This document shows, in pieces, positions 12,244 through 60,124 of a stretch of DNA of 64,000 nt. This DNA is from Pelosinus fermentans JBW45 (lineage in GTDB: Bacteria > Bacillota > Negativicutes > DSM-13327), in assembly GCF_000271665.2 (NCBI RefSeq), contig NZ_CP010978.1, positions 2,140,501 to 2,204,500 on the forward strand, written 5' to 3'. Both the position numbers and the translations under genes were made by a program. The notes under the pieces were generated by a model that worked only from the letters and a program-made list of their open reading frames with translations, was not told where the DNA came from and ran no database searches. Each line of letters starts with the position of its first letter. The first letter of the stretch is position 1.

Positions 12244-12420
12244 AAAAGATAGTGATAGAAACGATAAAGCAACAGTGCTTGCAGCCAATACACTAAGTTT
12301 AAGATATTTATCAAGGGTTCTTTTTAAAGAAGTTAATAAGTGCTGGAGTTAAAAATGACTTGAATTCTAAATCCAAATGCAGTAATATTTAAACGACTAG
12401 TAATTTAGAATAACAAAATT

Positions 12421-12487
12421 AGGACTGAGAAGATATTTAAGGCTAAGATCGTTGTATCCTGATAAAGGAGATGTCTTAGTCTTTTTT
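12421..12487 (+). promoter_or_regulatory. Structured leader with terminator upstream of the cysteine desulfurase gene
   Basis: GGCTAAGA (12441-12448) pairs with TCTTAGTC (12474-12481) and is followed by six T, an intrinsic terminator. Inside its loop lies a small hairpin TCCT-GATAA-AGGA. Upstream, GACTGAG (12423-12429) can pair with the same CTTAGTC arm, an alternative fold that would prevent termination. The words TAACAA, AAGGCTAA and GATAA also occur in the tandem elements at 21806-21934. I cannot match it to a known riboswitch. Confidence 0.5.
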
Positions 12488-12523: not shown

Positions 12524-13681
12524 ATGATCTATCTGGATAATGCTGCCACCTCTTGGCCTAAGCCGGAAAGCGTATATCAAATGGTTGACAAGGTTATGCG
12601 ACAAATCGGAGCAAATCCTGGCCGTTCGGGGCATACCATGGCAATTGAAGCTGGCAGACTAGTTCAAGAAACAAGAGAATTAGCGGCAGCATTGTTTGCG
12701 ATTCCTCATCCGTCTCAGGTGGTATTTACCTTAAATGTTACTGATTCTCTTAATCTGGCTTTAAAAGGATTGCTGCAGCCAGGTGATCATGTTATTACCA
12801 GTTCTATGGAACATAATGCTATGGCTCGCCCCTTAGAAGCGCTGCGTAAAAATGGAGTAACTGTTACCAAGGTGGCGACATCGCCTGTTAATGGAATTTC
12901 TCTCCGGGAGATTCAGAATGCTATTCAGGCAAATACTAAGTTAATTGCCATAACTCATGCTTCTAATGTGACTGGTACATTAAATCCCATTGGGGAAATT
13001 GGACAAATTGCAAGAGAGTTTGGTGTTGCCTTTTTAGTAGATTGTGCCCAAACTGCAGGAGTTTTTCCAATCAATGTCCAGGAAATGGGAATTGACCTTT
13101 TGGCTTTTCCTGGTCATAAATCTTTATTAGGCTGTCAGGGGGTTGGCGGGCTATATGTCCATAAGGGGATTACTCTAAAAACCTTGCGTGAAGGCGGTAC
13201 TGGCAGCCATTCCGAGTCTTTAGAACAACCGGATGAATTACCAGAACGTTATGAGAGCGGCACACTTAATACTTCAGGAATTGCCGGACTTGGAGCCGGC
13301 ATTCGATATATCATGGAAACTGGTATGGAAAAGATAAAGCAGCGGGAAGAAGAATTGACAAATCTGTTAGTAGCAGGTTTGGCGAAAATACCGGGAGTGG
13401 TGCTTTATGGTCCGCCATTGGGACAGCAGCGAGCTGCTGTTGTGTCATTTAATCTTGAGCAGATCAGTGCGAATGAGCTGTGTATGATTTTGGATAAATC
13501 CTTTCAGATTGCTGTCCGTCCAGGTCTGCATTGTGCCCCGGATGCTCATCGAGTACTGGGAACCTTGCAGGGGGGCACAATCCGTATTAGTCCAGGCTAT
13601 TTTACTAGAGAAGAAGAAATAGAAACGTGCTTACAGGCAATTACTGCGATTGGGAAAGAATTGGTGGAGGAAATGAAATGA
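12524..13681 (+). CDS. Cysteine desulfurase family protein (SufS/Csd-like aminotransferase class V)
   Basis: PLP enzyme expected to take sulfur from cysteine and hold it as a persulfide. 385 residues. Visible landmarks: His97 in SMEHNA, Asp173 in VDCAQTAG, the PLP-binding Lys199 in FPGHKSLLG, and a catalytic Cys337 in RPGLHCAPDAH. The short N-terminus (MIYLDNAATSWPKPE) fits the clostridial subgroup often annotated as a cysteine desulfurase family protein rather than IscS. The next gene, a ThiF/MoeB-like E1 enzyme, overlaps its stop codon (ATGA), so sulfur is probably passed to a carrier-protein C-terminus. The leader at 12421-12487 suggests control by early termination. The final sulfur acceptor is unknown. 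Confidence 0.85.
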   Translation: MIYLDNAATSWPKPESVYQMVDKVMRQIGANPGRSGHTMAIEAGRLVQETRELAAALFAIPHPSQVVFTLNVTDSLNLALKGLLQPGDHVITSSMEHNAMARPLEALRKNGVTVTKVATSPVNGISLREIQNAIQANTKLIAITHASNVTGTLNPIGEIGQIAREFGVAFLVDCAQTAGVFPINVQEMGIDLLAFPGHKSLLGCQGVGGLYVHKGITLKTLREGGTGSHSESLEQPDELPERYESGTLNTSGIAGLGAGIRYIMETGMEKIKQREEELTNLLVAGLAKIPGVVLYGPPLGQQRAAVVSFNLEQISANELCMILDKSFQIAVRPGLHCAPDAHRVLGTLQGGTIRISPGYFTREEEIETCLQAITAIGKELVEEMK

Positions 13682-14700
13682 TACATGTACCAGAACGATA
13701 CTCCAGGCAAGCTATTTTTCAAGGTATCGGTTCAGCGGGTCAGGAGAAGATTGGGCACAGTCGGGTGGCGATCATTGGTTTAGGAGCACTGGGAACTGTA
13801 GTTGCCAATAACTTGGTGAGAGCTGGGATTGGATATATACGCTTAATTGACCGTGATTTTGTAGAGATAAGCAATTTACAGCGGCAAACGATTTTTGATG
13901 AAGCGGATGTTCGTGAGCAACTTCCTAAAGCCGTTGCTGCTGCTCAGCATTTGGAAAAGGTCAATTCAGAAATAACACTAGAGGCAATCGTCAGCGATGT
14001 GAATGCCTCAAATATTGAAACGCTGTTAACGGATATTGACCTTGTCATGGATGGCACGGATAATTTTGAGACTCGCTTCCTTTTAAATGATGTCTGTTTA
14101 AAAAAGAATATTCCTTGGGTGCACGGGGCTGTATTAGGGAGTTATGGTCTTACTGCGAACATGATTCCAGGACAAACTCCATGTTATCGATGCTTCATGC
14201 CTGAAATGCCAGAAACAGGGGCTGGCGGCACTTGCAGCTCAGTTGGAGTGCTGAATATGATTACGGGTATCATTTCATCTTATGCATCGGCAGAAGCTTT
14301 AAAAATACTGGTTGGCAGTTCTGATATCAGAAAGTCAGCCCTTTTCATTGATGTTTGGAATAACTCTTTTCATAGCAAAGAGCTATCGAGGCAATCAGAT
14401 TGTCCTGCCTGTGTTAAACATGAATATCATTATCTTGCTAAAGGAAAAGGTACCTATACGACTTTGCTATGCGGGCAAAAAGCAGTGCAGATTGTGCCAG
14501 GTCAGGTTCGCAAGATGGATTTTTCCGATATTCTAAAGCGTTTGGCCCATGTTGGAGAAATTCAATCCAATCCTTTTCTTTTGCGTTTGAAAATTCATGA
14601 GATAGAAATAACTCTTTTTGCTGACGGACGGGCGATTATCAAAAATGTTGAAAATGAAAATAAAGCAAAGGCCCTCTATACAGAGTATTTTGGATTGTGA
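13678..14700 (+). CDS. ThiF/MoeB/HesA-family adenylyltransferase (E1-like)
   Basis: Activates the C-terminal glycine of a ubiquitin-like sulfur carrier by adenylation. 340 residues from the ATG that overlaps the upstream stop (ATGA). The Rossmann nucleotide loop IGLGALG is at 33-39, with the family segments RLIDRDFVEISNLQRQ and DGTDNFETRFLLND. Zinc ligands are Cys169/Cys172 (CYRC) and Cys242/Cys245 (CPAC). A Cys186 in GGTCSSVG fits the persulfide or catalytic position. The last 80 residues form an extra C-terminal domain not found in ThiF itself. No carrier gene (ThiS or MoaD) lies in the window. Coupling to the desulfurase gene makes sulfur transfer for thiamine, molybdopterin or amino-acid synthesis likely; which one cannot be told. 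Confidence 0.85.
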   Translation: MIHVPERYSRQAIFQGIGSAGQEKIGHSRVAIIGLGALGTVVANNLVRAGIGYIRLIDRDFVEISNLQRQTIFDEADVREQLPKAVAAAQHLEKVNSEITLEAIVSDVNASNIETLLTDIDLVMDGTDNFETRFLLNDVCLKKNIPWVHGAVLGSYGLTANMIPGQTPCYRCFMPEMPETGAGGTCSSVGVLNMITGIISSYASAEALKILVGSSDIRKSALFIDVWNNSFHSKELSRQSDCPACVKHEYHYLAKGKGTYTTLLCGQKAVQIVPGQVRKMDFSDILKRLAHVGEIQSNPFLLRLKIHEIEITLFADGRAIIKNVENENKAKALYTEYFGL

Positions 14701-14748
14701 TCAATATGCAATGCATTACACATTTGTATATTTTTGGGATCATGACAT

Positions 14749-14931
14749 TTAGTGATTGTCAATATGATTGTCCCGAGTGTAACTTTTCTTTTCTCAGCAG
14801 TGTAGCTGCTGCCTGAAGAGCAATTAACGAGTGGTATTACAGAGGATCTTATACGCCTATCCATTGGACTGGAAGATATAAATGATTTACTGTATTATCT
14901 CGATAAAGCACTTACTGAGTCAGTAATATAA
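14749..14931 (+). pseudogene. C-terminal remnant of a Cys/Met-metabolism PLP enzyme (MetB/MetY/MGL family)
   Basis: Reading on from a stop at 14803, the frame to 14931 encodes LPEEQLTSGITEDLIRLSIG followed by LEDINDLLYYLDKAL. This is the unmistakable C-terminus of the trans-sulfuration family (cystathionine synthase/lyase, O-acetylhomoserine sulfhydrylase, methionine lyase). The preceding stretch in the same frame holds a decayed version of the HPASxTHS block with a TAG. The catalytic core is gone. It follows the desulfurase and E1 genes, which suggests that this was once a larger sulfur amino acid operon. Confidence 0.65.
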
Positions 14932-15360: not shown

Positions 15361-15477
15361 AGAATACACCTCCCAAGAAAAAATATATGCATTTTAAAAA
15401 AATATAGAACTAGATAATAGACACCAATAGTGTTAATTTGACTTTCAAGATAGGGTGGGATATAATATTATTCAAGT

Positions 15478-15712
15478 CCTAAGATACAGAGTAGTAGGCT
15501 TTGTTTATGGTGCAGAAAGTTGGCGGATGATGCGAGCCAGCCCTTAAATTTGCTGAACTCACTGTGGAGGATCAGCTATGAATTAGTAATAGCTGACGCT
15601 TGATTAGTGTTAACAATCATTGAGAGGATGGCAATAGCTGTCAATCAGGGTGGTATCGCGGGTGTATATAACTCGTCCCTGGCTAATAAGCCAAGGGGCG
15701 GTTTTTTATTTT
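15478..15712 (+). ncRNA. T-box leader (tRNA-Leu sensing) upstream of leuS
   Basis: Contains the conserved T-box sequence AGGGTGGTATCGCG at 15647-15660, followed by a terminator (CGTCCCTGGCT / AGCCAAGGGGCG with six T, 15674-15710). The upstream stem I region includes GAACTC, in which CTC would be the leucine specifier codon. Uncharged tRNA-Leu should bind and favour the antiterminator, turning on leuS. The position directly before leuS agrees. Confidence 0.93.
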
Positions 15713-15733: not shown

Positions 15734-18214
15734 ATGAACGAAAGATATAATCCTAAAGAAATTGAATCTAAATGGCAGAAATACTGGACTGAAAATAATG
15801 CTTTTAAAACGGAACTCAATCGTCAGCGTCCAGAATATTATGTTTTAGAAATGTTTCCTTATCCTTCCGGCAATTTACATATGGGTCATGTTCGCAACTA
15901 TTCCATTGGTGATGTAATTGCGAGATTCAAAAGCATGCAAGGTTATAATGTACTTCATCCTATGGGATGGGATTCTTTTGGGATGCCTGCTGAAAATGCG
16001 GCGATCAAGCATGGTGTTCATCCTGCAGAGTGGACCTGGGAAAATATTGCCAATATGCGGCGTCAACAGCAGGAATTAGGTTTATCTTATGATTGGGATC
16101 GTGAAGTGGCAACCTGTCATCCTGATTATTATCGCTGGACCCAATGGTTATTCTTATTGTTCGTAGAGCGTGGACTTGCCTATAAGAAGAAAGCTGCAGT
16201 GAATTGGTGTAATGAATGTAATACCGTGCTCGCAAATGAGCAAGTAATTGATGGTGCTTGCTGGCGCTGCGATTCTGTCGTAGTTAAAAAAGAATTAGAA
16301 CAGTGGTTTTTCAAAATTACAGACTATGCGGATCGGCTTTTAAATGATCTTAGTGAGCTTAAGGGCTGGCCTGAGAGAGTTAAAACGATGCAGGAAAATT
16401 GGATTGGTCGTAGTGAAGGAGCGGAATTCAGCTTTGCTGTGGCAGGTTCTGAAGAAAAAATTGCTGTATATACAACACGACATGATACGGCTTTTGGTGT
16501 AAGTTATGTAGTATTGGCACCGGAGCATAAATTGGTAGAAAAGCTGATTGCTGGTAAAGACAATGCAGGGGAAATTCGTCAATTTGTTGATAAAGTACGC
16601 AATATGAGCGAGATTAGCCGAACCTCCAGTGAGTTTGAAAAAGAAGGTATATTTACAGGGGCTTATGCTATAAATCCGTTCACTGGTCAAGAGGTGCCAA
16701 TTTGGGTAGCAAATTATGTTTTGGTGGAATATGGTACTGGAGCAGTTATGGGCGTTCCAGCCCATGATGAACGAGACTGGCAATTTGCCAATAAATATAA
16801 TTTAACTAAAAAGATCGTTGTGCAGCCTGAAGGGCAGGAATTGGCACTAGACACGATGGAAGGCGCATACAGCGGCGATGGTATCATGGTCAATTCTGGG
16901 CAGTTTAGTGGTATGAAGAGTGAAGCAGGTAAAGTAGCAATCGCAAAATGGTTAGAAGAACAAGGCTATGGCAAGCGCCATGTAAATTATCGTTTGCGCG
17001 ATTGGCTGGTATCTCGTCAACGCTATTGGGGGGCACCAATTCCTCTTATCAATTGTGCTGACTGTGGTAGTGTGCCTGTTCCAAAGGAACAGTTACCTGT
17101 TTTATTGCCCGAGAATGTAAATTTTGCTGCAGGCTCGGTTTCGCCGTTAGCCAAGGTAGAAGAGTTTGTAAATTGTACATGTCCTAAATGTGGTGGCCCT
17201 GCGAAGCGTGAGACTGATACGATGGATACTTTTATTTGTTCCTCATGGTATTATATGCGTTATGCAGACCCTAAGAATACAAATCTTCCTTTTGAGTCCT
17301 CAAAGGCTGATTATTGGGCACCTGTCGATCAATATATTGGTGGTATTGAGCATGCGATATTACATCTTTTATATTCAAGGTTTTTTACAAAAGTGCTTAA
17401 AGATGCAGGATTAGTAAATGTAAATGAGCCATTTAAGAACCTATTAACACAAGGAATGGTTATAAAAGATGGTTCCAAAATGTCTAAGTCTAAGGGGAAT
17501 GTCGTGTCTCCTGAAGAAATTATTGCAAAATATGGGGCTGATACAGCTCGATTGTTTATTTTATTTGCTGCTCCGCCGGAACGTGACTTAGAATGGAATG
17601 ATCAAGGCGTAGAAGGTTCTTATCGATTCCTTGGACGTCTGTGGAGAATTGTGGATCACTATGCTTCTTTCATGGCAGGAGAAGAGTCGGGATATGACAA
17701 TAGCACTCTTAGTAAAGAGGAACGAAATCTTAGACGTGTATTGCATGCAACGATTAAGAAAGTAACAGAAGATATTGGTGATCGCTTCAACTTTAATACC
17801 GCCATTAGTTCTATTATGGAATTAGTAAATGCAATGTATACCGCTAAGGATCAGAATCTAGCTGTCAATCCTGGGTTAGTGCGAGAACTTGTTTCAAGTT
17901 TATTATGCTTGTTAGCCCCTTTCGCGCCTCATATCACAGAAGAATTGTGGAGCGAAACCATTGGCCAAGGTAGTGTGCATAAACATATATGGCCTGTGTT
18001 TGATGAGGATGCTATAAAGTTAGAAGAAGTAGAAATTGTTGTACAGATTAATGGGAAAGTGCGGGAAAAAATTGTTGTTTCTGCCACACTTACGCCAAAG
18101 GAGTTAGAAGAAAAAGTATTAGAGCAAGAAAAAGTGCAGGCACTGATTCATGAGAAACAAGTGATAAAAGTAATTGCCATAGCAGGAAAATTAGTTAATA
18201 TTGTAGTACGTTAA
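15734..18214 (+). CDS. leuS: Leucyl-tRNA synthetase
   Basis: Class I synthetase that charges tRNA-Leu. 826 residues, normal bacterial size. The HIGH-type motif is HMGH at 49-52 ([15 protein letters not shown]) and the KMSKS loop is near 582-586 ([10 protein letters not shown]). The zinc-domain Cys pairs are present (CNEC and CWRC near residues 160-175; later CADC and CPKC). The editing (CP1) domain lies between, with [19 protein letters not shown] near 250-270, including the Thr-rich and Asp positions used for hydrolysis of mischarged tRNA. The start ATG follows AGGAGG. A single-gene unit regulated by the T-box leader. Confidence 0.98.
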
Positions 18215-21779: not shown

Positions 21780-21802
21780 TGTTATACTTTTTAAGTATAA
21801 CA
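21780..21802. promoter_or_regulatory. 23-bp perfect palindrome, operator candidate of the sulfur island
   Basis: TGTTATACTT-TTT-AAGTATAACA, fully symmetric. It lies just upstream of the tandem leader elements, where the promoter of the DUF2325 gene should be, and includes TATACT, which could be a -10 box. The GTTATA/TATAAC half-sites recall ModE operators, but other regulators would fit as well. The 21584-21779 stretch before it shows no gene. Confidence 0.55.
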
Positions 21803-21805
21803 ATT

Positions 21806-21867
21806 GCTGATCAGGATAACTGAAGGCTAAAGGTGTCTCTATAACGGAGATTCTTTTAGCCTTTTTT
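21806..21867 (+). promoter_or_regulatory. Leader element, first tandem copy, with terminator
   Basis: Begins GCTGATCAGGATAACTGA, where TCAG-GATAA-CTGA is a small hairpin, and continues into AAGGCTAAAG ... CTTTTAGCCTT with six T, an intrinsic terminator. The terminator loop holds a second small stem (TCTC / GGAGA). The same plan repeats at 21877. I do not recognise the element. Confidence 0.55.
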
Positions 21868-21876
21868 ATATACTAA

Positions 21877-21934
21877 GCTGACTGGATAACCAGAGGCTGG
21901 CTTCTTTCGTAAAAGCGAAGGAACCAGTCTTTTT
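21877..21934 (+). promoter_or_regulatory. Leader element, second tandem copy, with terminator
   Basis: Begins GCTGACTGGATAACCAG, where CTGG-ATAA-CCAG is a small hairpin, then GGCTGG-c-TTC ... GAA-CCAGTC with five T. The arrangement and the words GCTGA, GGATAAC and AGGCT match the copy at 21806. It ends 20 bases before the DUF2325 gene, so both terminators must be passed for expression. Confidence 0.55.
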
Positions 21935-21954: not shown

Positions 21955-22248
21955 ATGTCAATTATGCTAGTTGGCGCAGATCATTTAGGAAATATCGAAA
22001 AAAAATTGCAGACATTAGGAATTCATGCAATTCATCATGTTACAGGTAGAAATGTTTCTGATCGAAAACGCTTTAAGTTTCCCTTATCTACAACTTTGAT
22101 TGTTATTTTTATTGATTATATTAATCATACTACAGCGAAAAATATTAAGCAGCTGGCCAAATCTCAAGGGGTTCCCCTCGTGTTCGCAAATCGTTCTTGG
22201 AGTTCATTACAAGATAAATTAGTCGATTTCAATTTAAAAGAACTATGA
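21955..22248 (+). CDS. DUF2325 family small protein
   Basis: 97 residues, soluble, with the pattern of DUF2325: MSIMLVGADHLGNIEKKLQT at the start, a middle strand (TLIVIFIDYINHTTAKNIKQ) and a C-terminal strand/helix (VPLVFANRSWSSLQDKL). The fold looks like a small alpha/beta domain. The function of the family is not established to my knowledge. It starts seven bases after GGGAAG and overlaps the next reading frame by an ATGA, but the next real start is the GTG at 22284. It follows the two leader terminators and precedes YezD-like genes and a cystathionine beta-lyase, so a role in sulfur metabolism is likely by context. Confidence 0.7.
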   Translation: MSIMLVGADHLGNIEKKLQTLGIHAIHHVTGRNVSDRKRFKFPLSTTLIVIFIDYINHTTAKNIKQLAKSQGVPLVFANRSWSSLQDKLVDFNLKEL

Positions 22249-22283
22249 TAACTATGTTTTTTATTAAGACGGAGGTCTTTGTA

Positions 22284-22457
22284 GTGCAGTCCTGTTCGGA
22301 TGCGAAGAATAATGTGGCAAATTTAAGAGGGGCGATTAAACCATTGCCTTCTCAAGTGTTTGATATTATTGAGCATTTTTTATTAAACGTTCAACATGGT
22401 CACTTAATTTTAATGATACAAGATGGATTTGTTGTTAAAATAGATAAAATAGAATAG
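22284..22457 (+). CDS. YezD family (DUF2292) small protein
   Basis: 57 residues from the GTG at 22284, which has GGAGGT seven bases upstream; the longer frame from 22245 would include this ribosome binding site. The core QVFDIIEHFLLNVQHGHLIL followed by MIQDGFVVKIDK is the YezD pattern (helix, then two strands with a Q-D-G turn). YezD-like proteins are commonly found next to sulfur-assimilation genes in Bacillota, but their activity is unknown. Co-transcribed with the DUF2325 gene. A shortened second copy lies at 22522. Confidence 0.75.
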   Translation: MQSCSDAKNNVANLRGAIKPLPSQVFDIIEHFLLNVQHGHLILMIQDGFVVKIDKIE

Positions 22458-22521
22458 TTTATGATCTCGGCTAAAAAGTAGAGAGGGTGGTTATTCAATA
22501 AAGGCAAAGAAAAATCATCCT

Positions 22522-22599
22522 ATGCAAATGAAAATTTTATCTGATTTACAAAGCATACGATACGGACAATTGGTCATTGATGTGAATAATGGGCAATGA
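22522..22599 (+). pseudogene. Truncated second YezD-like gene
   Basis: Encodes 25 residues, MQMKILSDLQSIRYGQLVID then VNNGQ, before TGA. This matches the YezD core (LxxIxYGxLxIxVxxGQ) but stops where the final strand should begin, so the gene is cut short. Probably a decayed tandem duplicate. Confidence 0.55.
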
Positions 22600-22855: not shown

Positions 22856-23039
22856 ATGATACAAGTAAAGGGGTACACAAATCATTTGGAAAGCAGCAAG
22901 TATTAAATGGAATTGACCTTACCGTAGAGAAAGGTGGGTAGTTGTGCTATTAGGTCCCAGTGGCTCTGGCAAGACAACTTTTTTACGGTGCCTAAATTTT
23001 TTGGAGCATCCAGATGATGGAGAAACGAATTTTACCTGC
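22856..23039 (+). pseudogene. Broken N-terminus of a polar amino acid ABC transporter ATPase
   Basis: Starting at ATG 22856, the DNA encodes, after allowing two one-base frame slips, IQVKG ... HKSFGKQQVLNGIDLTVEKG ... VVVLLGPSGSGKTTFLRCLN then FLEHPDDGETNF. This is the first 60 residues of a GlnQ/TcyC-type ATPase with an intact Walker A. The frame slips are near 22875 and 22935, and the rest of the gene is missing. Lying beside a C-S lyase gene, it probably came from a cystine or similar uptake system. Confidence 0.75.
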
Positions 23040-59809: not shown

Positions 59810-59868
59810 ACGCTGCTATATACCATTGACAATATAAATAACTTTTGTTATGATTTTAACTAAATTAA

Positions 59869-60124
59869 GGCAATGAAGGAAAAAAGTAACCTATTGTTTT
59901 TAGCGAGTCAGGGATGGTGCAAGCTTGGCAATGTAATGGGTGAAAGGCATTCCTAAGCCGTAAGAGGAAATTCTGCGCATTCGCTCGATAGAGTTTTTAT
60001 GTGGAAGAGTAAAACTTGCTATAACTTAAGGTGGATCATGTTCTCATGGTCAATCAGGGTGGAACCGCGGGAAAAACCTCTCGTCCCTGTAACGATATGT
60101 TACTGTGGACAGGGAGGTTTTTAT
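59869..60124 (+). ncRNA. T-box leader (tRNA-Gly sensing) upstream of glyQS
   Basis: Contains the T-box sequence AGGGTGGAACCGCGG at 60056-60070, followed by a terminator built of AAACCTC ... TCCCTGT pairing with ACAGGGAGGTTT and T-run. The stem I region includes AAAGGCATTCC, in which GGC would be the glycine specifier. Uncharged tRNA-Gly should lift termination before glyQ. Confidence 0.93.

What the first reader, a model, noticed from the sequence alone, without database searches (positions are those of the whole stretch)
12421..12487. A related leader before the cysteine desulfurase/E1 pair suggests a shared sulfur regulon
The element before the desulfurase gene has TAACAA, AAGGCTAA, a GATAA-loop hairpin (TCCT-GATAA-AGGA) and a six-T terminator, features also found in the tandem units at 21806-21934, though the small hairpin is inside the terminator loop here. 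GACTGAG upstream can compete for the terminator arm. Both loci are sulfur-related by gene content and both carry remnants of lost sulfur genes.
Basis: partly seen in the sequence, partly recalled or inferred. Interest (0 to 1): 0.52.

Follow-up and report, generated by a model that had tools for sequence, protein, structure and literature searches.

The report
Decayed copy of a sulfur antiterminator
The RNA leader before this sulfur-handling gene looks like a worn-down copy of a widespread RNA switch that seems to turn on sulfur-scavenging genes, and a small protein of unknown function (DUF2292/OscA) is its likely partner.

Summary
The csd leader (12420-12487) shares ancestry with the tandem units at 21802-21934. 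They belong to an RNA family without an Rfam match: hits in 60 of 150 Negativicutes, 42 of 299 Bacilli and three deltaproteobacterial MAGs. Its core, AGCY-GA-YYRG-loop-CYRR-A-GGCU, overlaps a terminator's 5' arm, so hairpin and terminator exclude each other; both helices covary, the outer one weakly. It precedes cysK, sulfate, sulfonate and methionine transport, cysH-like and nitrogenase-like genes, so a shared sulfur regulon is right. The csd copy keeps the terminator but at best a marginal trace of the switch hairpin; a copy in another genus is one base from canonical. The likely trans factor is DUF2292 (OscA/YezD): present in 26/26 element-bearing close genomes against 2/14 others, often encoded just upstream of an element, sometimes behind a SAM riboswitch. 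Many Negativicutes copies end in GDGI like E. coli CysE's tail, suggesting O-acetylserine sensing through CysK. RNA binding and sulfur response are inferred, not shown.

The parts
12360..12388 (+). candidate promoter of the csd leader: TTGAAT-17-TAATAT (8 of 12 consensus letters)
   Evidence: read by eye and present in the 5-genome alignment; not among the sites, so inference
12422..12438 (+). segment where the family's switch hairpin (P1/P2) should be; here degenerate (GGACTGAGAAGATATTT)
   Evidence: only a weak look-alike fold, -1.0 kcal/mol, 71% of shuffles at least as stable; 13 of 17 columns invariant in 5 genomes
12439..12487 (+). intrinsic terminator of the csd leader: AAGGCTAAG / CTTAGTCTT, six T
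   Evidence: R1 21.0 bits for this part alone; arms invariant but for a G-U to G-C change in G007
12457..12469 (+). TCCT-GATAA-AGGA hairpin inside the terminator loop; not the family's conserved hairpin
   Evidence: loop differs in G002
12524..13681 (+). cysteine desulfurase family protein (TIGR01977)
   Evidence: E 2.3e-145, above cut-off
13675..14700 (+). MoeB/ThiF-type E1 adenylyltransferase
   Evidence: best PRK12475 E 8.6e-113 (below that model's cut-off)
21806..21828 (+). unit 1 antiterminator hairpin: P1 GCT/GGC, internal loop GA/A, P2 TCAG/CTGA, loop GATAA
   Evidence: 72.4 bits; -7.5 kcal/mol
21823..21867 (+). unit 1 terminator AAGGCTAAAG...CTTTTAGCCTTTTTT
21876..21898 (+). unit 2 antiterminator hairpin: P1 AGCT/GGCT, GA/A, P2 CTGG/CCAG, loop ATAA
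   Evidence: 51.5 bits; -10.0 kcal/mol
21895..21934 (+). unit 2 terminator
21955..22248 (+). DUF2325 protein, controlled by the tandem units (inferred)
   Evidence: Pfam PF10087 E 3.6e-13
22245..22597 (+). broken DUF2292 gene (proposed regulator family): internal stop after the first domain, then a frameshift; the end is approximate
   Evidence: intact 129-aa relatives L131, L134
14806..14931 (+). remnant of the C-terminus of a Cys/Met-metabolism PLP enzyme after the E1 gene
   Evidence: frame read; family assigned by eye

Best explanation
The csd leader is a decayed member of a sulfur antitermination family. In intact members RNA polymerase by default meets an intrinsic terminator placed before the gene. 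A hairpin of about 22-27 nt (P1 3-4 bp, a nearly invariant GA/A internal loop, P2 4 bp, A-rich loop) uses the terminator's 5' arm (GGCU) as its 3' side, so hairpin and terminator cannot coexist. It is weaker than the terminator, so a trans factor is needed to stabilise it under sulfur starvation (inferred). The best candidate is the small protein DUF2292 (OscA/YezD family), encoded behind a SAM riboswitch in some genomes and in Negativicutes possibly restrained by CysK through a CysE-like GDGI tail. The csd copy keeps the terminator but hardly any hairpin, so it should act as a constitutive or nearly unregulated attenuator. Shown here: family, structure, exclusivity, gene content, co-occurrence, gene adjacency. 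Inferred: RNA binding, direction, signal.
For: Family: R1 hits in 60 of 150 Negativicutes at E<=1e-4, up to 25 per genome, and 42 of 299 Bacilli at E<=1e-3. Structure: P1+P2 in A3 (145 distinct rows, mostly Negativicutes): 96.1% of cells paired, 63 double-change cells against 11.2 in shuffles; in A5 (60 distinct rows, none from Negativicutes genomes, 9 elements also in A3): 94.9%, 62 against 19.0. Partial transcripts fold to P1+P2 in 134 of 142 and 56 of 60. Whole-switch changes: GACU..GGUC..GAUC in L033-L035, AACU..GGUU..AACC, GGUU..GACU..AGUC. Genes: 58 of 114 downstream genes fall in ten named clusters, cysK, MetN, sulfate-binding protein and DUF2292 among them. DUF2292: 26/26 against 2/14 close genomes, own included (p 1.6e-8), 37/42 against 83/257 Bacilli (p 5.8e-12), 8/8 other genomes. 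The hairpin lies within 350 nt of DUF2292 in 10 of 15 loci from Bacilli that R1 had missed, against 1 of 680 mononucleotide-shuffled windows. SAM riboswitch just upstream of DUF2292 in 15 of 57 loci searched. csd decay; near-canonical csd leader in G009.
Against: No transcript, binding or expression data. DUF2292 could be a regulon member rather than the factor. 83 Bacilli have DUF2292 without an R1 hit (R1 is tuned to Negativicutes terminators), and 5 R1+ Bacilli lack it (all E>=5.5e-5; two inspected, L256 and L264, look false). No hairpin was found beside DUF2292 in the six loci of the five Paenibacillaceae genomes, nor in L265, L266, L274, L276, so adjacency is common, not general. P1 varies little; its outer pair is unpaired in 32 of 144 A3 and 19 of 58 A5 cells, and on the small set A2 the number of pair types is below the shuffles (5 against 6.4). 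Predicted DUF2292 fold has no convincing relative, so RNA binding gets no support from fold. Some sites precede genes with no plain sulfur link. The csd leader's membership rests on 31 bits, two thirds of it terminator, and on one intermediate (G009); and its best fold in G000 is still a faint P1/P2 look-alike.
Confidence: 0.66

Rival explanations
1. The element family is real but the signal is read by a small molecule (a minimal riboswitch) or by an unknown protein; DUF2292 is only a co-regulated target that travels with sulfur genes.
For: DUF2292 genes are themselves downstream of elements (9 of 114 genes). Co-occurrence cannot tell target from regulator. Some Bacilli have DUF2292 and no R1 hit, and some DUF2292 genes have no hairpin beside them.
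Against: The core RNA is only about 22-27 nt with a variable loop, small for a metabolite aptamer. DUF2292 often sits UPSTREAM of the element, i.e. not under it (own genome cysK locus L063; G195, G352, G242, G244, G267, G274, G174, G368, G210), and in 15 loci it is behind a SAM riboswitch instead. It is homologous to OscA, named for the sulfur starvation response.
Confidence: 0.25
2. The csd leader is still a functional switch, by GACUGAG (12423-12429) pairing with the terminator's 3' arm CUUAGUC, or by a weak P1/P2-like hairpin with a bulged A.
For: GACUGAG:CUUAGUC is 7 pairs in G000, G001, G002, G004. The best partial fold in G000 is a faint P1/P2 look-alike, -1.0 kcal/mol. The leader is better conserved than the region further upstream.
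Against: The enforced 3'-arm alternative is 4.9 kcal/mol worse than the terminator (-14.5 against -19.4). In G007 both sides changed without compensation and the look-alike is absent in G002 and G007. The family's rare P1 variants follow the 5' arm, not the 3' arm.
Confidence: 0.15
3. The csd leader is an ordinary terminator that resembles the family by chance.
For: Two thirds of its R1 score is terminator. Plain terminators with similar arms reach 23-25 bits (L078, L081).
Against: It ends 36 nt before a sulfur gene. Genome-wide E is 0.0013 with an independent model. The orthologous leader in G009 has GCTGA-TAAG-TAAA-CTGA-AGGCT at 34.8 bits, one base from canonical P2.
Confidence: 0.12
4. The hairpin is not an antiterminator: the bound factor could promote termination, or act on mRNA stability or translation.
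For: Direction of regulation was not measured.
Against: Hairpin and terminator share GGCU and exclude each other. The recalled phenotype of oscA mutants (failure to use organosulfur compounds) is that of a lost activator.
Confidence: 0.08

Closest known systems
RAT / BglG-LicT-SacY protein-dependent antitermination (recalled)
   Same: Short imperfect hairpin overlapping the terminator's 5' arm, excluded by the terminator. The regulator gene is often next to the site.
   Different: One internal loop instead of two. No CAT RNA-binding domain protein in 15 of 26 element-bearing close genomes. Sulfur genes instead of sugar genes.
Bacillus subtilis ssu operon attenuation (van der Ploeg, Barone, Leisinger 2001; only the title seen, in the reference list of PMC10708946)
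   Same: Sulfonate genes controlled at transcription termination in a bacterium whose genome has a DUF2292 gene (control).
   Different: Its leader sequence was not seen here, so identity with this family is untested.
Sulfonate-operon attenuator cluster in bacilli (Naville and Gautheret 2010, PMC2965389; section 14 read)
   Same: A common terminator-type element before a sulfonate ABC operon and another gene.
   Different: The alignment is in a supplement not readable here; no structure, factor or wider regulon is stated in the section read.
OscA, sulfur starvation response protein (NF033785; Viti et al. 2009, seen only as cited in passages of PMC2996968, and PMC3596284)
   Same: All 7 DUF2292 proteins scanned match the OscA model at E 1.6e-14 to 8.1e-6 (an eighth protein scanned, from L115, is not DUF2292). 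oscA forms a unit with sbp.
   Different: All score below the model's cut-off of 85 bits. No RNA role of OscA is stated in the passages seen.
SAM-I riboswitch (S box, RF00162) and T-box
   Same: Transcription attenuation of sulfur or amino-acid genes in Bacillota.
   Different: No Rfam match on the elements. SAM-I instead precedes DUF2292 in 15 of 57 loci searched.
CymR-CysK of B. subtilis (cited in PMC4961446, passages)
   Same: CysK as a sulfur-status subunit of a regulator; CysK partners usually end in isoleucine.
   Different: CymR binds DNA; here the proposed partner is a DUF2292 protein with a GDGI tail, and the site is RNA.

Membership tests
Sulfur antiterminator family defined here (for the csd leader) | intrinsic terminator with AAGGCY 5' arm before a gene | tested here: met
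Sulfur antiterminator family defined here (for the csd leader) | P2 hairpin of 4 bp (YYRG/CYRR) directly before the terminator arm | tested here: not met
   two of four P2 pairs non-standard in the R1 alignment; at most three weak pairs GAA/UUU in G000, none in G002 and G007
Sulfur antiterminator family defined here (for the csd leader) | P1 (AGCY/GGCU) with GA/A internal loop | tested here: not met
   only GG(A)CU/GGCU with a bulged A and a GA/AA loop, -1.0 kcal/mol, in G000; not in G002 and G007
Sulfur antiterminator family defined here (for the csd leader) | common descent with intact members | tested here: met
   R1 31.3 bits without csd training; near-canonical orthologue in G009. So filed as derived and decayed, not as a working member
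BglG/LicT RAT systems | CAT RNA-binding domain protein in the genome | tested here: not met
   PF03123 in only 11 of 26 element-bearing close genomes
BglG/LicT RAT systems | hairpin overlapping the terminator's 5' arm | tested here: met
Rfam families (SAM, T-box and all others) | covariance-model match on the element | tested here: not met
   none on elements at gathering score in the window nor at E<=1 in 11 loci
ANTAR target RNAs | two hairpins with six-base loops (recalled) | tested here: not met
   P2 loops of 4-5 nt in 104 of the 120 best elements; usually one such hairpin per element
OscA equivalog (for the DUF2292 proteins) | NF033785 above its cut-off | tested here: not met
   homologous but below 85 bits in all 7 DUF2292 proteins scanned
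Antiterminator proteins (for DUF2292) | specific RNA binding | not testable with these tools
   no binding assay; fold comparison uninformative

The most novel reading that the evidence does not exclude
DUF2292 (OscA/YezD), a family for which no solved relative was found here, is a new class of RNA-binding antiterminator that runs a cross-phylum sulfur-starvation regulon through a hairpin of about 22-27 nt. Its dose is set by a SAM riboswitch in some bacteria, and its activity in Negativicutes by CysK, which captures a C-terminal GDGI tail like that of E. coli CysE until O-acetylserine displaces it. The csd leader is a copy that lost the hairpin, and the surrounding nitrogenase-like sulfur island has been deleted here.
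Probability: 0.35. Interest if true: 0.9.

Novelty: new variant of a known kind. Interest (0 to 1): 0.76.

Why it matters
It proposes a function for DUF2292/OscA/YezD, a widespread small-protein family; yezD is listed as 'Unknown' in a table of a 2019 paper (PMC6385201, passages). It may explain how sulfonate and sulfate genes are controlled at termination in Bacillota. It gives a compact, testable RNA-protein switch with a specific sensor hypothesis (CysK and O-acetylserine). It also points to nitrogenase-like sulfur-associated clusters as targets of RNA-level control.

Tried and rejected
Rfam at gathering score (window) and at E<=1 (11 loci) gave no match on the elements. BglG/LicT-type factor: rejected as the general one, PF03123 in only 11 of 26 element-bearing close genomes. 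Competition by GACTGAG for the 3' arm as the family's switch: rejected on G007 and on the L033-L035 variants. CysE as the bearer of the GDGI tail in these genomes: 0 of 30 CysE-type ORFs read, one per locus, end in GDGI; second CysE copies such as G000:C1:4345802 were not read. Foldseek and VIA-align 2 on the DUF2292 model (pLDDT 73.5): no match at E<=0.001, best Z 4.4, so no fold family named; that shows neither a new fold nor the lack of relatives. No PDB sequence relative (best E 0.096). Two viral contigs pattern hits (L171, L172), the Bacteroidota hit L109 and L149 gave no R1 match at E<=0.01 and look like chance coding matches. Paper searches: in openly licensed PMC papers only; Mansilla 2000 and van der Ploeg 2001 are not held.

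Full report
1. What is at the coordinates. Downstream are a cysteine desulfurase family gene (TIGR01977) and a MoeB/ThiF-type E1. The window lies in a 5.38-Mb single-contig genome.

2. The related elements are one RNA family. The arm pattern shared by the csd leader and unit 1 occurs 3 times in the genome, 0 in the reversed control, and in 19 of 40 close genomes, own included. A covariance model R1 was built from 20 such elements, csd leaders left out. It finds 14 sites in the genome at E<0.002: unit 1 at 72.4 bits, unit 2 at 51.5, csd thirteenth at 31.3. In Negativicutes 60 of 150 genomes have hits at E<=1e-4, up to 25 per genome; this genome has 9, the seven other same-genus genomes 13-24. 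An exact-core scan of the named genome collection gave 84 stretches, mostly Sporomusa, Pelosinus and relatives, but also Paenibacillus, Fontibacillus and three deltaproteobacterial MAGs, one of them Candidatus Adiutrix. R1 then hit all 8 of those non-Negativicutes genomes tried and 42 of 299 Bacilli at E<=1e-3.

3. Structure and switch. P2 is a 4-bp hairpin; P1 pairs AGCY with GGCU, and GGCU is also the terminator's 5' arm. In A3 (145 distinct rows, the best 150 of 166 matches) the P1+P2 helix has 96.1% of cells paired and 63 double-change cells against 11.2 in shuffles. In A5 (60 distinct rows from Bacilli and deltaproteobacteria; 9 of its elements are also in A3) it has 94.9% and 62 against 19.0. 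Slid versions fall to 20-56% paired. The alignments were fitted to P2 and the terminator, not to P1. Most covariation is in P2; P1 adds fewer double changes, chiefly in its outer pair, which is also the least paired (32 of 144 A3 and 19 of 58 A5 cells unpaired). On the small training set A2 one measure, further pair types, is below the shuffles. The GA/A internal loop is nearly invariant (140, 132 and 141 of 142). Some members changed P1, the terminator's 5' arm and its 3' arm together: GACU-GGUC-GAUC, AACU-GGUU-AACC, GGUU-GACU-AGUC. That is what two mutually exclusive helices would leave. Truncated transcripts ending before the 3' arm fold to P1+P2 in 134 of 142 (one of the 142 is the G007 csd leader) and 56 of 60.

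4. Gene content. From 147 non-overlapping hits (22 upstream members of tandems and 11 without an ORF set aside) 114 downstream genes fall in 48 clusters. Ten clusters were named: cysK 17, DUF2292 9, MetN 6, nitrogenase-alpha/NifE-like 6, an aminotransferase followed by taurine-type ABC genes (by eye) 5, sulfate-binding protein 5, YeiH-like 3, sulfopropanediol-dehydratase-like 3, NifH-like 2, NifB-like 2; 58 of 114 in all. The labels are best NCBIfam models for one representative cut to 300 residues, several below cut-off. The other 56 genes were not scanned one by one; by eye some are of sulfur type (PatB-like 6), many cannot be assigned. In this genome the sites precede, among others, cysK, two Cys/Met PLP enzyme genes, an SsuA-like binding protein, a dicarboxylate-symporter-family transporter and DUF2325. 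Not all fit: a histidine kinase, a chemotaxis-type protein, a flavin reductase and a small membrane protein are also downstream, and one site (L070) has no gene close by. In Bacilli and the deltaproteobacteria the sites precede cysH-like, sulfate ABC, SsuD-like and cysK-like genes, and a MarR-type regulator in seven loci (read by eye).

5. The csd leader is decayed. Its R1 score is two thirds terminator (21.0 of 31.3 bits; unit 1: 33.9 of 72.4). Partial transcripts: G000 -1.0 kcal/mol, a faint P1/P2 look-alike with a bulged A and three P2 pairs, no better than shuffles (71% at least as stable); G002 -0.3 and G007 -2.8, other folds; G009 -3.1, P1 with two P2 pairs. Family medians are -8.5 and -8.8. 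In G009, another genus of the family, the csd leader reads GCTGA-TAAG-TAAA-CTGA-AGGCT, 34.8 bits, one base from canonical. In five same-genus genomes the terminator arms are 9/9 and 14/15 invariant and the switch segment 13/17. In relatives csd and E1 sit in a large island with nitrogenase-like genes, a cysK-like gene and several intact elements (gene names partly by eye). In this window that island is gone and csd-E1 are followed by a short remnant. A simple history is loss of the hairpin before loss of the island, since the island-bearing relatives already lack it; the order is inferred.

6. A candidate factor. DUF2292 (PF10055) is present in 26 of 26 close genomes with R1 hits (own included) and 2 of 14 without (p 1.6e-8). 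The two exceptions (G019, G036) belong to family f11, other members of which have weak hits. In Bacilli 37 of 42 R1-positive and 83 of 257 R1-negative genomes have it (p 5.8e-12); the five misses are weak hits, E>=5.5e-5. All 8 non-Negativicutes genomes have it. Related genomes are not independent, so these p values overstate. Gene order is telling: DUF2292 lies just upstream of an element in this genome (then cysK; L063), in Candidatus Adiutrix (G155; then a cysK-like gene) and in nine Bacilli genomes (G195, G352, G242, G244, G267, G274, G174, G368, G210). In six of the nine the next gene was read: cysH-like in three, sulfate-transport type in three. As a test on loci R1 had not flagged, a hairpin matcher found the core beside DUF2292 in 10 of 15 loci from R1-negative Bacilli (9 downstream, 1 upstream), and in 15 of 34 gene entries in all (one G155 gene entered twice), against 1 of 680 mononucleotide-shuffled windows. 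Those 15 are the best-scoring DUF2292 loci, not a random draw, and include close relatives. It found none in the six Paenibacillaceae entries (L269-L273, L277) nor in L265, L266, L274 and L276. A SAM riboswitch sits directly before DUF2292 in 15 of the 57 loci searched, some of them close relatives. DUF2292 proteins are relatives of OscA, 'sulfur starvation response protein' (NF033785). Inactivating oscA made Pseudomonas corrugata chromate-sensitive, and oscA forms a unit with sbp, as cited in PMC2996968 (passages). CAT-domain antiterminators are excluded as the general factor.

7. A sensor idea. 28 of 65 distinct DUF2292 ORFs end in GDGI; none of the other ORFs does among the 7571 of 40-260 residues read from the loci then held. 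E. coli K-12 CysE ends in EYGDGI, the tail that plugs CysK (recalled). CysK partners usually end in isoleucine (PMC4961446, passages). None of 30 CysE-type ORFs read from these Negativicutes has GDGI. The tail has low confidence in the AlphaFold model (alpha-beta-beta twice; pLDDT 73.5, tail under 50). So CysK may hold DUF2292 when O-acetylserine is low. This is inference, and the single-domain Bacilli proteins read lack the tail.

8. What is known. Control of sulfonate genes at termination is on record for B. subtilis (title only), and a sulfonate-operon attenuator cluster in bacilli was noted in 2010 without a factor (section 14 of PMC2965389). Whether either is this element was not testable. 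Searches listed no paper joining DUF2292 or YezD to RNA (openly licensed papers; 30 of 184 listed, mostly unrelated words; passages read in two).

9. Verdict. The csd leader itself is most likely a relic, and the interesting object is the family and its probable DUF2292 partner.

Noticed in passing
22245-22597: The window's DUF2292 gene is broken (internal stop, frameshift) while relatives keep an intact 129-aa gene; an intact copy remains elsewhere in the genome beside cysK (L063).
   Followed up: yes
14700-14931: Between E1 and the next gene lie two remnants: a stretch resembling the start of the gene after E1 in G001/G004 and a C-terminus of a Cys/Met PLP enzyme, marking a deletion of the sulfur island (by eye).
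   Followed up: partly
22900-23030: Remnant of an ABC transporter ATPase (LLGPSGSGKTTFLRCLNFLEHPDDGE) before the PatB gene.
   Followed up: no
L202, L204, L205: Nitrogenase-like clusters in same-genus and same-family genomes carry several sulfur antiterminator elements, suggesting a sulfur-scavenging role rather than nitrogen fixation.
   Followed up: partly
L258, L260, L261, L263, L217, L219, L250: In seven Bacilli loci the element precedes a MarR-like regulator gene (by eye), a possible further sulfur regulator.
   Followed up: no
L295-L297: DUF2292 directly followed by a DUF2325-like gene in some Bacilli (by eye); in the window DUF2325 is followed by DUF2292. The two may work together.
   Followed up: no
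15472-15683 and 59864-60091: Two T-box leaders (RF00230), the first before an aminoacyl-tRNA synthetase-like gene at 15734.
   Followed up: no
12320-12340: This genome lacks a 12-nt segment containing TTGACA that the four other same-genus csd upstream regions keep.
   Followed up: no
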